Shown here: positions 18,153-23,820 of the stretch, piece after piece | How positions within the stretch are numbered: position 1 is the stretch's first letter | Layout of the letters: each line of letters opens with the position of its first letter | Assembly: GCA_009785555.1 (NCBI GenBank) | Contig: WQWB01000009.1 | Location: forward strand, 1 to 39,673 | Direction of reading: 5' to 3' | Length of the DNA stretch: 39,673 bases | Source of the DNA: Defluviitaleaceae bacterium | GTDB lineage: Bacteria > Bacillota > Clostridia > Lachnospirales > WRAX01 | Translations under genes and position numbers: made by a program | The notes under the pieces: model-generated | Told to the model about the DNA's origin: nothing | Databases searched by the model: none | Seen by the model: the letters and a program-made list of their open reading frames with translations, nothing else

Positions 18153-18977
18153 ATGTATTTTTCGATGGACGAAATAGGATTTGGGAATACCGAAAAAATC
18201 AAGAGAATCACGTCAGAAGCTGACCGGTGGCGGTTTATCTACGATACCGCGAAGGCGTACGGTTTTGATGGCGTACACATAACGCCGTCTCTTTACAATG
18301 ACGATTTTGGGTTGGATTTGCTTAATATACCAAACTATTTTCAGGATTTTAAATTGACGCTGCATTTCGGCGGTTTTGGCAGGCTCGTTTCGGAGGATGA
18401 TTTCGCCGCCTGCGATAGGGCTTTGGTTCAAAACCTTGAGGTTGCTTTAAGGAGCGATATGCACGACATATCCATACACCCACCGAATATTATGGGTCTA
18501 TCGCCGGACGAAAAGAAGCACTGCCTTGAACTTTTTCATAGGGCCGTGACAAAGTGGCTCGGAATTGCGCTGAAAAGTAATTTATCGTTGTCGCTTGAAA
18601 CGCATGTTACGGGTAAATACTTTTTGTTTGACGGGTTGGGGGAGTATGTGCGATTTATTGAAAACTACCCAGACTTAGGCGTACTTATTGACATATCACA
18701 TAATTATTACGATGGGTATTCCGAGGATGAGATAATAAGCCATTTGGTAGATAAAAACGTAAAATGCCTGCATATAAGCGATGCCGTACAGGGTGCGGAG
18801 TTTAAGGCTGGCACGCATTTACCCGTCGGCCGAGGCGGTATGGATATTGCGAAAATACTTACGGGGTTTGCCCATATCCCTGGTTTATGTTCCGTTTTGG
18901 AGATTAAGGCAGACAGTGGAGATATAGGTAAAAGTTTGGAGTTATTGCAAAGGATGATTATTAAACGAAAGGATTGA
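18153..18977 (+). CDS. Sugar phosphate isomerase/epimerase-like TIM barrel protein
   Basis: The protein has 274 residues. It fits the AP-endonuclease-2/xylose-isomerase-like TIM barrel: 'YGFDGVHITPSL' (beta1-2), 'LTLHFGGFG', 'HDISIHPPNIMG' with a metal-type histidine, 'LSLETHVTGKYF' with a glutamate, 'LGVLIDISHNYYDGYS' with D-x-S-H, 'VKCLHISDAV' with H-x-S-D, and 'LCSVLEIKAD' with the last glutamate. These residues line a divalent metal site in the family. The true substrate is not clear. The ribosome binding site AAGGAGG is strong. pheS follows within 9 bases of its stop. Confidence 0.75.
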   Translation: MYFSMDEIGFGNTEKIKRITSEADRWRFIYDTAKAYGFDGVHITPSLYNDDFGLDLLNIPNYFQDFKLTLHFGGFGRLVSEDDFAACDRALVQNLEVALRSDMHDISIHPPNIMGLSPDEKKHCLELFHRAVTKWLGIALKSNLSLSLETHVTGKYFLFDGLGEYVRFIENYPDLGVLIDISHNYYDGYSEDEIISHLVDKNVKCLHISDAVQGAEFKAGTHLPVGRGGMDIAKILTGFAHIPGLCSVLEIKADSGDIGKSLELLQRMIIKRKD

Positions 18978-18985
18978 CCTTAATA

Positions 18986-20023
18986 ATGAACGAAAAATTA
19001 CAAGAAATAAACAATGCGGCGCAAGCTGCCGTTGCGGCGATAAGTGGAGCGACGGGTATTAAAGAACTGGAGGACATCCGCGTTGAGGTTTTCGGCAAAA
19101 AAGGGACGTTGACGGCGCTGATGAAAGCCATGGGCGGCTTGTCTGCGGACGAACGCCCTGTCTTCGGCCAAGCGTCGAATGCGGCGCGTATGGAAGTGGA
19201 AGCCGCGCTTAACGCGCGATTGGCGGAACTTAAGGCCGCCGAGATGACAAAACGCCTTGCGGATGAGGCATTGGATATTACGATACCGGGCCAAAAACCC
19301 ATCCGCGGCGGCCGACACCCTATGACGATCGTTACTGAGGATCTCTGCAAAATCTTTATGGGTATGGGCTTTGAGATTGCCGAAGGGCCGGAGGTTGAGA
19401 CGGCATATCACTCCTTTACAGCTCTAAATATATCGGAAACCCACCCGGCAAGAAGCGAGCAAGATACTTTTTATTTTAATGAAAACCACGAATTTTTATT
19501 GCGTACCTGTACATCACCCGTGCAAGTACGTGTGATGGAAGAGCGCAAGCCCCCCATCCGGATCATCTGCCCCGGCAAGGTCTACAGGTCAGACAATGTA
19601 GATGCGACGCACAGCCCTGTATTTCATCAAATGGAGGGGCTTGTGGTCGATAAAGGCATTACTTTCGGTGATTTAAAGGGCGCACTAACCGTTTTCGCCC
19701 GCGAGTTGTTCGGCGAGGAGACGGTCGTCCGCTTCCGCCCGCACTACTTCCCATTCACTGAACCGAGCGGCGAGATGGACGTGCAGTGCTTTGCCTGCCA
19801 AGGCATCGGCTGCCGCGTATGCAAGGGAGATGGTTGGGTGGAGCTTTTAGGTTGCGGTATGGTGCATCCCAACGTGCTGAAAATGTGCGGTATCGACCCG
19901 GACGTATACAGCGGCTACGCATTTGGCATGGGTTTGGAGCGCGTGGCGATGGCGCGCTTCGGCGTGAACGACCTGCGCGTGTTTTTTGAGAACGATGTGC
20001 GGTTTTTGGGGCAGTTTGCGTAA
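18986..20023 (+). CDS. pheS: Phenylalanine--tRNA ligase alpha subunit
   Basis: The protein is 345 residues from ATG 18986; a TTG at 18974 is in frame, but AAAGGA at 18969 sits better for the ATG. The N-terminal coiled coil (about 1-80) precedes the class II core: 'HPMTIVTEDLCKIFMGMGFE', 'THPARSEQDTFYF', 'LLRTCTSPVQVRVM' (Phe pocket), 'RICPGKVYRSDNVDATHSPV' (motif 2), 'HQMEGLVVD' and 'FGMGLERVAMARFGVNDLR' (motif 3). It ends F-L-G-Q-F-A, the normal end. PheS works as an alpha2-beta2 enzyme and normally sits directly before pheT. Here pheT is absent and a repeated hairpin module starts inside its stop codon. There is no T-box leader before pheS. Confidence 0.96.
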   Translation: MNEKLQEINNAAQAAVAAISGATGIKELEDIRVEVFGKKGTLTALMKAMGGLSADERPVFGQASNAARMEVEAALNARLAELKAAEMTKRLADEALDITIPGQKPIRGGRHPMTIVTEDLCKIFMGMGFEIAEGPEVETAYHSFTALNISETHPARSEQDTFYFNENHEFLLRTCTSPVQVRVMEERKPPIRIICPGKVYRSDNVDATHSPVFHQMEGLVVDKGITFGDLKGALTVFARELFGEETVVRFRPHYFPFTEPSGEMDVQCFACQGIGCRVCKGDGWVELLGCGMVHPNVLKMCGIDPDVYSGYAFGMGLERVAMARFGVNDLRVFFENDVRFLGQFA

Positions 20024-20120
20024 TTTTATACTCATTAAACCATAAAATAGTCCGATAAGGTGCAATTACTGTAAGGTTCAACTTGAAAACAAAGACCGTT
20101 TTCAAATTGAACAGCTATAA
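20022..20120. repeat. 99-bp direct repeat with hairpin, left copy (abuts pheS)
   Basis: This matches 23722-23820 base for base at an offset of exactly 3,700, with 5 mismatches. Inside it 'GTTCAACTTGAAAAC' (20076-20090) pairs with 'GTTTTCAAATTGAAC' (20098-20112) around the loop AAAGACC, with one mismatch. Its first 26 bases, read in the frame of the right-hand copy, still code N-F-I-L-I-K-P-stop, matching the tail N-I-I-L-A-K-P of the 532-residue protein. It begins at the second base of the pheS stop codon. Confidence 0.9.
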
Positions 20121-21710: not shown

Positions 21711-21929
21711 TATAATCCTCCGTTTAAAACGGCAGGACACTAAAACACGTGCCTGCCGTAAATTAAATGTCTACGATAAAGCACAGGTATAACAATTTAA
21801 ATTGACAATTAAATTCACACTTGCTAGTATTGGCGGTTTAAGTAGAAAGCGATGAAACTGTTTTCAACTTAAATGGCGATACATTCTCAGTTTGCTGCGA
21901 TGGGTGCCGTCCCCTCAATGTATGTTCTT

Positions 21930-21958
21930 ATTTTACTATTTGCGGAGCTATTTGTCAA
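21930..21958 (-). promoter_or_regulatory. Promoter of paralogue A
   Basis: On the minus strand TTGACA (21958-21953), a 17-base spacer and TAAAAT (21935-21930). Transcription would start near 21923, giving a 5' leader of about 210 nt before the ATG at 21710. Confidence 0.75.
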
Positions 21959-21976
21959 TAACATAAAAATTGGGGC

Positions 21977-22005
21977 TTGTAAATTAACTTCCTAAATGCT
22001 ATACT
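21977..22005 (+). promoter_or_regulatory. Promoter of paralogue B
   Basis: TTGTAA (21977-21982), a 17-base spacer and TATACT (22000-22005), with TG one base before the -10 box. The leader to the ATG at 22147 would be about 135 nt. Confidence 0.7.
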
Positions 22006-22146
22006 TATTTTTATACGCGGGAGAAGACACTCATAAAATTAACACGCAGCGTAAGGCTATTTTATAGTTAAACGAGTATATATTCGGGCGGGCTTGCGTT
22101 TGCGGCCATGCGCCAACGTTTTGCTTGCATTTTTTATGAGGTGAAC

Positions 22147-23745
22147 ATGTTAAATAAACTTATAAACGTTATAGATGAACGTGGAAACACATTGGCACCA
22201 ACCTACCCGCGGCGTGCAAAGTACCTTATTCGACACAAACGTGCGAGGGACAACGGCGACGGATCTATCACATTACTTACGCCGCCAAAGTCCATGGCAA
22301 TCACTAAATATAAAGACGCTTTTTTGAATTATCTATTCGAAAAGAAACGCGCGCAAAAAACGATAGACGAACATATGCGGCTGTTTGGCATGTTTGGAGA
22401 CACGTTGCCCGATGTTTCGGCTATCGGTGATTTTTGCTGGGGTAAATTTAACATAAGTTACGGGTCTGGTGAACTAACAGCTAGGTTTAAGTTTTTAGAC
22501 GAGCTTGCCGCGTTTTGTGAAGCGTCTGGCGGCGATGGCATTATAAACTTTGAAATACCGATATTCGCTGGCGCAATCCGCGTCATGATACACGATTACT
22601 TTGAGGGTGCGGCGTGGCGCGCGGTTACGGAGATGAAGAAGGCTATTGTGCCTATTCCAGCAAATACGCAAATCGACCCGCAGTTCCTTGGCGGACTTAG
22701 TAACGACGAGTTTGTTGCGGCTTTTGCAGCGCTTCAGGAATTGGTTTACGGCATTTATGAAGGCATTGAGCAGGGTTCACCGTTTGAATGGGGCTGGCCG
22801 GATTGGCGCGGTCTTGGTGTGTACGGTATAGACCACGATAGGGTACTTAGAGCGTTACATTTACTTTCGCACGGGGAATTGGTTTGTGATACCTTGGTTT
22901 TGGATAAGAAATCTTATTTTTCATACGAACCCAACAAACCGCAGGAACGCGCAGTGATGCTGCTTAAGGGCTTTGCCGACCATGGATTTGATATTGAAGG
23001 GCTTGATGACAAAAAGTCGCCGTCGTTTACGGTTTCGTGCCCCGATTCGCCAAATGTTATGCGTGTTGTACATGCGTATTTTAGGGTTAGGGATAATCCC
23101 GGCGGCTGTGTTAAATGTACGGAAAGCTGCGAGGAGGACTATTGCTGGCGTACGGAGTATTGGCGTCATACAAAGAGGGTTTCGCACCGTTTTGTGGAAA
23201 TGCGGGATGATAGCGATAGAGATGGACAGCTCTCCATAGCCCCCTGGTCGCCGGAGCGGTGGTACAGAGCAGAGTTTCTGGCTCGTACGGACGCGTTGCC
23301 GGAGGGGTTGCGCGCAACCCATTACTCTATATTTGAGGATGCGTGCAGGGTTGGTATTTGGGCAGAACCGTTCTATTCAATGTTTGACGACTCAATCGTT
23401 TACGGTAAGGGTACATGGAAGAAGCATAAACGGCTGATATATAATGACAACGGCACGATAAGGATGCGGCTGGAGCGTGTTTTCGCCAAGCATCCGTTAA
23501 AGGTTGGCGAGGCGGAGGCGCGTTTCCCGGGTATTATCACAAATCATCGGCATTTTTGCGGGGAATGCAAGCCGGATTGCAAATACAGGCTTGGTTACGG
23601 CGAGGATAGCGATAATGATAGCGATAAAGGCAAATCATGCTGCACGTACGCGGAATTTTACTTCCGTAACCTAACCTATGACGACGTGATGTTCGTGTGG
23701 GAGCTGTTTAAGCTGGACAACAATATTATACTCGCTAAACCATAA
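22147..23745 (+). CDS. RRXRR/PLMP-like N-domain protein with a cysteine-containing body (paralogue B)
   Basis: The protein is 532 residues from ATG 22147, which has GAGGTG about 6 bases upstream; an upstream in-frame ATG at 22108 lacks one. Residues 5-45 match paralogue A's front domain: 'INVIDERGNTLAPTYPRRAK' with P18 at the P-L-M-P position and R22-R23. The middle shares 'IDPQFLGGLSNDEFVAAF', 'FEWGW', 'DDKKSPSFTVSCPDSP' and 'SHRFVE'. Cysteines group as C-V-K-C, C-E-E-D-Y-C and, near the end, 'FCGECKPDCKY' and C-C-T-Y, suggesting two or more metal sites. The end helix 'YDDVMFVWELFKLDNNIIL' matches A. I see no RuvC or HNH residues. The gene's last codons and stop lie inside the right 99-bp repeat. 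Its function is unknown. Confidence 0.55.
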   Translation: MLNKLINVIDERGNTLAPTYPRRAKYLIRHKRARDNGDGSITLLTPPKSMAITKYKDAFLNYLFEKKRAQKTIDEHMRLFGMFGDTLPDVSAIGDFCWGKFNISYGSGELTARFKFLDELAAFCEASGGDGIINFEIPIFAGAIRVMIHDYFEGAAWRAVTEMKKAIVPIPANTQIDPQFLGGLSNDEFVAAFAALQELVYGIYEGIEQGSPFEWGWPDWRGLGVYGIDHDRVLRALHLLSHGELVCDTLVLDKKSYFSYEPNKPQERAVMLLKGFADHGFDIEGLDDKKSPSFTVSCPDSPNVMRVVHAYFRVRDNPGGCVKCTESCEEDYCWRTEYWRHTKRVSHRFVEMRDDSDRDGQLSIAPWSPERWYRAEFLARTDALPEGLRATHYSIFEDACRVGIWAEPFYSMFDDSIVYGKGTWKKHKRLIYNDNGTIRMRLERVFAKHPLKVGEAEARFPGIITNHRHFCGECKPDCKYRLGYGEDSDNDSDKGKSCCTYAEFYFRNLTYDDVMFVWELFKLDNNIILAKP

Positions 23746-23820
23746 AATGGTCCGATAAGGTGCAATTACTGTAAGGTTCAACTTGAAAACAAAGACCGTT
23801 TTCAAGTTGAACAGCTATAA
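23722..23820. repeat. 99-bp direct repeat with hairpin, right copy (end of paralogue B)
   Basis: The repeat begins inside the last codons of paralogue B and runs past its stop. 'GTTCAACTTGAAAAC' (23776-23790) and 'GTTTTCAAGTTGAAC' (23798-23812) form a perfect 15-bp stem with loop AAAGACC. The same module, in the same direction, ends at 20120. Confidence 0.92.

What the first reader, a model, noticed from the sequence alone, without database searches (positions are those of the whole stretch)
21711..22146. Long structured leaders and a repeat-related hairpin between the two RRXRR-like genes
Seen: two strong, opposed promoters leave leaders of about 210 nt (-) and 135 nt (+). The minus leader has two hairpins; one arm matches the right arm of the 99-bp repeat hairpin in 12 of 15 positions. 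Known: in IscB systems the omega RNA lies directly upstream of the gene in sense orientation, at about this length. Inference: the leaders may encode a companion RNA, or the related hairpins may be left-end and right-end recognition sites for a transposase acting in trans.
Basis: partly seen in the sequence, partly recalled or inferred. Interest (0 to 1): 0.7.

Follow-up and report, generated by a model that had tools for sequence, protein, structure and literature searches.

The report
New RNA motif heads RRXRR genes
Both leaders between the two genes begin with the same small folded RNA, and that RNA sits in front of nearly every gene in this bacterial order whose protein starts with the RNA-binding RRXRR domain, so domain and RNA appear to travel as a pair, as in the RNA-guided nuclease IscB but with a different RNA and unrelated protein partners.

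Summary
The two leaders are real, and each starts with a copy of one undescribed structured RNA: minus 21923-21879, plus 22014-22053. Consensus: P1 stem, G, GGG-NNGRCA-CCC (P2), AUNAY, AAAAAAC, often AGC, P1'; an optional hairpin P3. Of 69 RRXRR (PLMP) genes found by protein profile, 54 carry it upstream in sense under a strict pattern; several more carry variants. A covariance-model search of 196 genomes gave 39 hits: 37 directly upstream of RRXRR genes, two at chance level. P1 covaries (z 9.8; score 0.322 in register, at most 0.135 when slid). No Rfam family matches, HEARO/omega RNA included; HEARO/IscB loci lack the motif. Homologues of the window proteins without RRXRR lack it too, so the motif follows the domain, not the effector. 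The repeat-related hairpin is a decayed copy of a dispersed repeat (about 17 full copies), not part of the motif. About 21 RRXRR genes seem to start at AUA/AUC/AUU, some inside a second motif copy; the domain is IF3-N-like, and infC also uses a non-AUG start. Best reading: a leader bound by the RRXRR domain that controls translation of its own gene. Binding is inferred, not shown.

The parts
21879..21923 (-). RRXRR leader motif of P0001: P1 21923-21917 with 21885-21879; P2 21913-21911 with 21904-21902; loop ACGGCA
   Evidence: model R3, built without window-lineage sequences, E 0.0012 in 135 kb
22014..22053 (+). RRXRR leader motif of P0002: P1 22014-22018 with 22049-22053; P2 GAG 22021-22023 with CUC 22030-22032; loop AAGACA
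   Evidence: aligned with orthologous leaders L106 and L107; weak on its own (R1 13.4 bits, E 0.25)
21930..21958 (-). promoter-like TTGACA-17-TAAAAT; a start about 7 nt downstream would begin the mRNA at the motif
   Evidence: 11 of 12 consensus positions
21977..22005 (+). promoter-like TTGTAA-17-TATACT with TG before the -10
   Evidence: 9 of 12; the -10 part is conserved in L106 and L107
22030..22140 (+). alternative pairing CTCATAAAA (22030-22038) with TTTTATGAG (22132-22140), which reaches into the Shine-Dalgarno region and excludes P2
   Evidence: kept through changes in L106 (CCTATAATAA/TTATTATAGG) and L107
20187..21710 (-). P0001, RRXRR/PLMP N-terminus plus domain of unknown fold, 507 aa
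22147..23745 (+). P0002, RRXRR/PLMP N-terminus plus the same domain, 532 aa
   Evidence: orthologues L106 and L107 at 60-63% identity
21788..21883 (+). decayed copy of the dispersed repeat lying in the minus leader; source of the 'repeat-related hairpin' (not part of the motif)
20026..20119 (+). dispersed repeat, copy 1 (flanks the locus, not part of the motif)
23726..23819 (+). dispersed repeat, copy 2; the 3' end of P0002 runs into it

Best explanation
Each leader begins with a copy of a small structured RNA (P1, P2 with loop NNGRCA, an A-rich strand, optional P3) that is the cognate cis-element of the RRXRR/PLMP domain. SHOWN by comparison: the motif exists, covaries, lies in sense near the predicted 5' end of the mRNA, and goes with the RRXRR domain, not with the effector fused to it. 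INFERRED: the RRXRR domain, which is IF3-N-like and contacts omega-RNA hairpins in IscB/IsrB, binds this motif on its own mRNA and adjusts its own translation. In one subset a second motif copy covers the apparent start region, which often has an AUA/AUC/AUU start. In the P0002 lineage the P2 3' strand can instead pair with the Shine-Dalgarno region. Whether binding represses or activates is not known.
For: Protein-only search finds 70 RRXRR domains in 37 of 196 genomes; the strict motif lies within 300 nt upstream of 54 of 69 genes, against 2 of 163 control ORFs, both next to the same RRXRR leader copies. Model search: 37 of 39 hits directly upstream, same strand. P1 with true partners 12.95 against 9.50 +- 0.35 shuffled, none of 2000; in-register covariation 0.322 against 0.074-0.135 slid, 20 double-sided changes against 8.4 shuffled. 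P3 inserts fold at -9.6 against -4.3 +- 0.5. Homologues without RRXRR lack the motif. Profile match of the domain to IscB/IsrB PLMP, P 8.5e-9; PLMP contacts omega-RNA terminal hairpins, and in IsrB the SD-bearing hairpin (PMC9640706, PMC9581776). 15 RRXRR genes have no AUG/GUG/UUG near the start, 13 of them with SD plus AUA/AUC/AUU; infC is controlled through such a start (PMC5472188).
Against: No binding or expression data. Four motif-lacking genes by eye (L031 and L169 with truncated upstream sequence, L035, L195). P2 hardly varies, so it rests on conservation. The plus-leader copy is divergent and scores poorly alone; its orthologues score E 0.1 and 0.67 with the independent model. R1 was built partly from the loci it was tested on. 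Sign of regulation is contradictory between subfamilies. IF3 itself, rather than the RRXRR protein, could act at the non-AUG starts.
Confidence: 0.5

Rival explanations
1. Companion RNA: the 5' leader, or a fragment cut from it, stays bound to the RRXRR protein as a ribonucleoprotein, as omega RNA does with IscB; the motif is its protein-binding handle.
For: Arrangement (RNA in sense directly upstream of a PLMP-domain gene) as in IscB; the same domain family; effectors differ while domain and RNA stay together.
Against: Motif is only 40-70 nt, with no guide-like variable segment seen beyond the self-paired P1; no HEARO similarity; second copies overlap coding starts, which fits an operator better.
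Confidence: 0.22
2. Riboswitch or other sensor: the motif binds a small molecule, or senses the initiation machinery (30S or IF3), and the RRXRR protein does not bind it.
For: Compact stem plus A-rich strand resembles small riboswitch designs; strongly conserved unpaired bases (NNGRCA, AAAAAAC); non-AUG starts would respond to IF3.
Against: Near-total restriction to RRXRR genes whatever effector is fused; a metabolite sensor would be expected on pathway genes too. No Rfam riboswitch match.
Confidence: 0.18
3. Transposon ends: the hairpins are left and right recognition sites of an element moved by a transposase in trans.
For: Real sequence relation between 21788-21883 and the dispersed repeat; the repeat is multicopy, and repeat-related segments cluster around the locus.
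Against: Nearly all repeat copies lie away from RRXRR genes. The related segment is a whole decayed copy in direct orientation, not one end. Orthologous loci have at most a weak match outside the leader (L106 8124-8163, 75% over 40 nt, E 0.002). The genome's RAYT has other REPs. No transposase beside the partial copies examined.
Confidence: 0.03
4. No functional RNA: similarity between the leaders is ancestry of paralogous genes plus chance hairpins.
For: P0001 and P0002 are paralogues (35%); folding z-scores of the window leaders are not significant.
Against: The motif heads many RRXRR genes with unrelated effectors, with compensatory changes in P1 and varied P3 hairpins.
Confidence: 0.03

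Closest known systems
HEARO RNA (RF02033) / omega RNA of IscB and IsrB
   Same: Structured RNA in sense directly upstream of a gene whose protein starts with a PLMP/RRXRR domain
   Different: 40-70 nt instead of about 200-300; other consensus and fold; no HEARO match; no guide seen; protein partners are not nucleases as far as detected
infC (IF3) autoregulation through a non-AUG start
   Same: IF3-N-like domain; AUA/AUC/AUU apparent starts in about 21 RRXRR genes
   Different: Most RRXRR genes, both window genes included, have ordinary starts; infC is not known to carry this motif; control is not tested
Ribosomal-protein-type autogenous leaders (recalled, not tested)
   Same: Short structured leader in the gene of an RNA-binding protein; product may bind its own mRNA
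   Different: Protein is not ribosomal; one motif serves many fusions to different effectors
REP/RAYT, MITE-like dispersed repeats
   Same: The flanking 93-bp repeat and its decayed copy in the minus leader are of this general kind
   Different: The RRXRR leader motif is gene-linked and covarying, and is not dispersed

Membership tests
HEARO / omega RNA (RF02033) | Match to the HEARO covariance model | tested here: not met
   No match to E 10 in the window, L106 or L107; none at gathering in 20 RRXRR loci; own genome none
HEARO / omega RNA (RF02033) | The new motif occurs in IscB/HEARO loci | tested here: not met
   No R1 or R3 hit in 15 HEARO loci; IscB genes follow HEARO in L198, L200, L201
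IscB/IsrB nuclease | N-terminal PLMP/RRXRR domain | tested here: met
   Profile comparison P 8.5e-9, probability 95.7; the window proteins score below Pfam's cut-off on PF14239 (E 0.17 and 0.078)
IscB/IsrB nuclease | RuvC and HNH domains | tested here: not met
   No such Pfam or NCBIfam match in P0001 or P0002; structure prediction unavailable, so a remote fold is not excluded
Known Rfam families in general | Match to any of 4227 families | tested here: not met
Structured cis-acting 5' leader | Compensatory base changes | tested here: met
Structured cis-acting 5' leader | Effect on expression of the downstream gene | not testable with these tools
   needs reporter assays
REP/RAYT element ends | Same hairpin beside the genome's RAYT gene | tested here: not met
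   RAYT at G000:C3:54302 carries GTAGGGGCGAAC repeats, not this repeat or motif
infC-type non-AUG start control | AUU/AUC/AUA start codon | tested here: inconclusive
   Sequence supports it for about 21 genes, not for the window genes; no protein N-termini available

The most novel reading that the evidence does not exclude
RRXRR/PLMP is a general RNA-handle domain: bacteria fuse it to unrelated effectors, each made together with, and staying bound to, a short leader RNA. IscB and its omega RNA would be one elaborated branch of this older domain-plus-leader pairing, tied to initiation control through the IF3-like fold and non-AUG starts.
Probability: 0.2. Interest if true: 0.92.

Novelty: new variant of a known kind. 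Interest (0 to 1): 0.78.

Why it matters
PLMP is the domain that IscB has and Cas9 lost, and its origin is open. A short, well-delimited RNA that accompanies the same domain in proteins without detectable nuclease parts gives a minimal, testable pair for asking what PLMP recognises, whether it began as a leader-binding regulator, and how an omega RNA could have grown from a regulatory 5' leader. It would also give a handle on many unannotated RRXRR proteins, and point to genes whose starts (AUA/AUC/AUU) annotation programs would miss.

Tried and rejected
Whole-leader folding energies: not informative. Rfam scans: nothing. DNA search of relatives with the whole intergenic region: only C7 and one promoter-like match, because the motif is too short for BLAST; orthologues found by protein gave the lead. 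Exact pattern scans of viral contigs: no match; protein relatives in viral contigs or plasmids: none. RAYT as owner of the 93-bp repeat: rejected. Left- or right-end-only repeat copies as ends of an autonomous transposon: no transposase recognised beside them. Pseudoknot between P2 loop and AGC tail: loop G/A goes with tail type, but this may be subfamily history; not claimed. Leader mini-ORF AUN-AYA-AAA-AAC-AGC-UGA: in a few members, broken by P3 in others; not claimed. A pair count with a mis-registered structure string was discarded. A control for start-less ORFs was too crude to use. Structure prediction of P0002 failed or was unavailable, so the effector fold is unknown.

Full report
WHERE IT IS. 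The window is contig C9 of a 1.69-Mb, 84%-complete draft genome. Relatives of the same family include MAGs labelled Defluviitaleaceae (Lachnospirales). Two divergent genes, P0001 (20187-21710 minus) and P0002 (22147-23745 plus), are about 35% identical. Each has an N-terminal RRXRR/PLMP domain and about 450 residues of a domain without database match. They lie between pheS (18974-20023) and small ordinary genes.

CHECK OF THE OBSERVATION. The two promoter-like sites and the leader lengths are as described. The hairpin related to the repeat is real, but it belongs to a decayed copy (about 21788-21883) of a dispersed repeat whose ends read TATACTCGCTAAACC and AACAGCTATA. The genome has about 17 full-length copies plus fragments, mostly far from RRXRR genes. 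A second diverged relative lies at C7:37205. A fragment of the repeat's left end lies inverted at 22057-22080. The decayed copy lies inside the minus leader, which is unusually long (253 nt from motif to domain; others 26-166).

THE CONSERVED ELEMENT. A protein-based search found two loci (L106, L107) with orthologues of P0002 at 60-63% identity. Their leaders align with the plus leader of the window from about 21997 to the start codon, with ACGCGGGnGAnGACAC..ATAA..GCAGCGTA conserved. A pattern scan showed a similar core upstream of unrelated RRXRR genes, and the same core is in the minus leader. RRXRR genes were then collected by protein profile alone: 70 matches in 37 of 196 genomes of the order. 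Their upstream regions were inspected.

STRUCTURE. Consensus: P1 (5-8 pairs, any sequence), G, P2 GGG/CCC with loop NNGRCA, AUNAY, AAAAAAC, often AGCNGA, then P1'. In 16-18 members a hairpin P3 of differing sequence replaces part of the A-rich strand. P1 with true partners scores 12.95 against 9.50 +- 0.35 with shuffled partners, not reached in 2000 shuffles (looser set). These shuffles do not remove relatedness of the sequences. In a gap-free set of 12, covariation is 0.322 in register and 0.074-0.135 when slid, with 20 double-sided changes against 8.4 in shuffles. P3 inserts fold at -9.6 against -4.3 +- 0.5 kcal/mol for shuffles. P2 varies little (GAG/CUC in the plus leader and L194), so it rests mainly on conservation. 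Both window copies have the full P1/P2 layout.

SPECIFICITY. A strict pattern finds the motif within 300 nt upstream of 54 of 69 RRXRR genes. Of 163 control ORFs two were flagged, both lying next to the same RRXRR leader copies. Several of the 15 strict failures have variants by eye (for example L125, L126, L041, L168, L171, L185); two had truncated upstream sequence. Model R1 (P2 only) over 196 genomes gave 39 hits at E <= 0.02: 37 lie 26-253 nt upstream, same strand, of an RRXRR gene; the other two (E 0.011 and 0.017) are at the level expected by chance for 196 genomes. R1 was built from some of these loci, so the useful number is the near absence of other hits; that search also used strict filters that lose weak matches. 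Model R3, built without any window-lineage sequence, finds the minus-leader copy first (E 0.0012 in 135 kb) and the L106/L107 copies second and third (E 0.1 and 0.67), and nothing in 15 HEARO loci. Homologues of the window proteins that lack RRXRR have no motif. The motif therefore goes with the RRXRR domain, not with the effector.

THE DOMAIN. The lineage profile aligns to IscB/IsrB PLMP at P 8.5e-9 and to TbaIscB in the PDB at E 0.013. The IsrB structure paper reports that PLMP resembles the N-terminal domain of IF3 and contacts the terminal hairpin of omega RNA that carries the Shine-Dalgarno sequence, and it suggests a possible role in regulating expression (PMC9581776). In IscB, PLMP recognises the terminal hairpins (PMC9640706). 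One of 11 profile members shows a weak IF3_N match (E 0.19). Partners fused to RRXRR here include a 2TM protein (Pfam), and, judged by eye, coiled-coil and beta-rich proteins and the window's domain.

TRANSLATION START. By an automatic test 47 of 69 RRXRR genes have a normal start with SD (P0002 also has one, missed for its spacing), leaving about 21. Fifteen genes have no in-frame AUG/GUG/UUG within 75 nt or back to the stop codon; 13 of these have an SD followed by AUA, AUC or AUU. In one subfamily this lies inside a second motif copy (GGGGACGACACCC-AUC-ACA-AAA-AAC). infC uses AUU (AUC in Streptomyces) and is repressed by IF3 (PMC5472188). The parallel is suggestive and untested. An ECF-like promoter ([AG]AC[TC]-N14-16-CGTA) precedes the motif in many 2TM-type genes: 26 of 73 upstream regions against 2.9 +- 1.8 in shuffles.

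MECHANISM. Most likely the RRXRR domain binds the leader motif of its own mRNA and adjusts translation. In the P0002 lineage the P2 3' strand can instead pair with the SD region, and that pairing is kept through changes in three sequences. The sign of control is open. A companion-RNA role and a sensor role remain possible. Transposon-end recognition is not supported.

NOVELTY. No Rfam family matches, and no paper found in the open library describes such a motif; subscription papers and preprints were not searched. It is a new RNA family of a known general kind (structured 5' leader), unusual in following a mobile domain that IscB shares.

Noticed in passing
Window 20026-20119 and 23726-23819; other copies on G000 contigs C3, C4, C14, C18, C20, C21, C33, C39, C45, C71, C72, C89: A 93-bp dispersed repeat (hairpin GTTCAACTTGAAAAC / GTTTTCAAGTTGAAC, TATA at both ends) with about 17 full copies plus fragments; longer hairpins with similar TATAG..CTATA ends occur in relatives (L059, L072). 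Possibly a miniature mobile element; mover unknown.
   Followed up: partly
L052 3110-3289 (G000:C7): The diverged repeat relative lies between two complementary arms (TTGAATCCAAACCGA .. TCGGTTTGGGATTCAA), as if it had inserted into the loop of a hairpin.
   Followed up: no
L104 1459-1965 (G000:C3:54302): A RAYT-like Y1 transposase gene surrounded by, and containing, its own GTAGGGGCGAAC REP sequences.
   Followed up: partly
Upstream of the motif in about 25 RRXRR loci (for example L033, L155, L176): A conserved ECF-like promoter ([AG]ACTTT..CGTATATA) ends shortly before P1, which suggests a common sigma factor for many RRXRR-2TM genes; the window genes have sigma-70-like promoters instead.
   Followed up: partly
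Window 21730-21757: GC-rich hairpin (GGCAGG..CCTGCC) with a short T run just before the Shine-Dalgarno sequence of P0001, possibly an attenuator.
   Followed up: no
L109 241-1602: An RRXRR-less homologue of the window's unknown domain in a MAG labelled Treponema (33% identity), so the domain has moved between phyla or the contig is misbinned.
   Followed up: no
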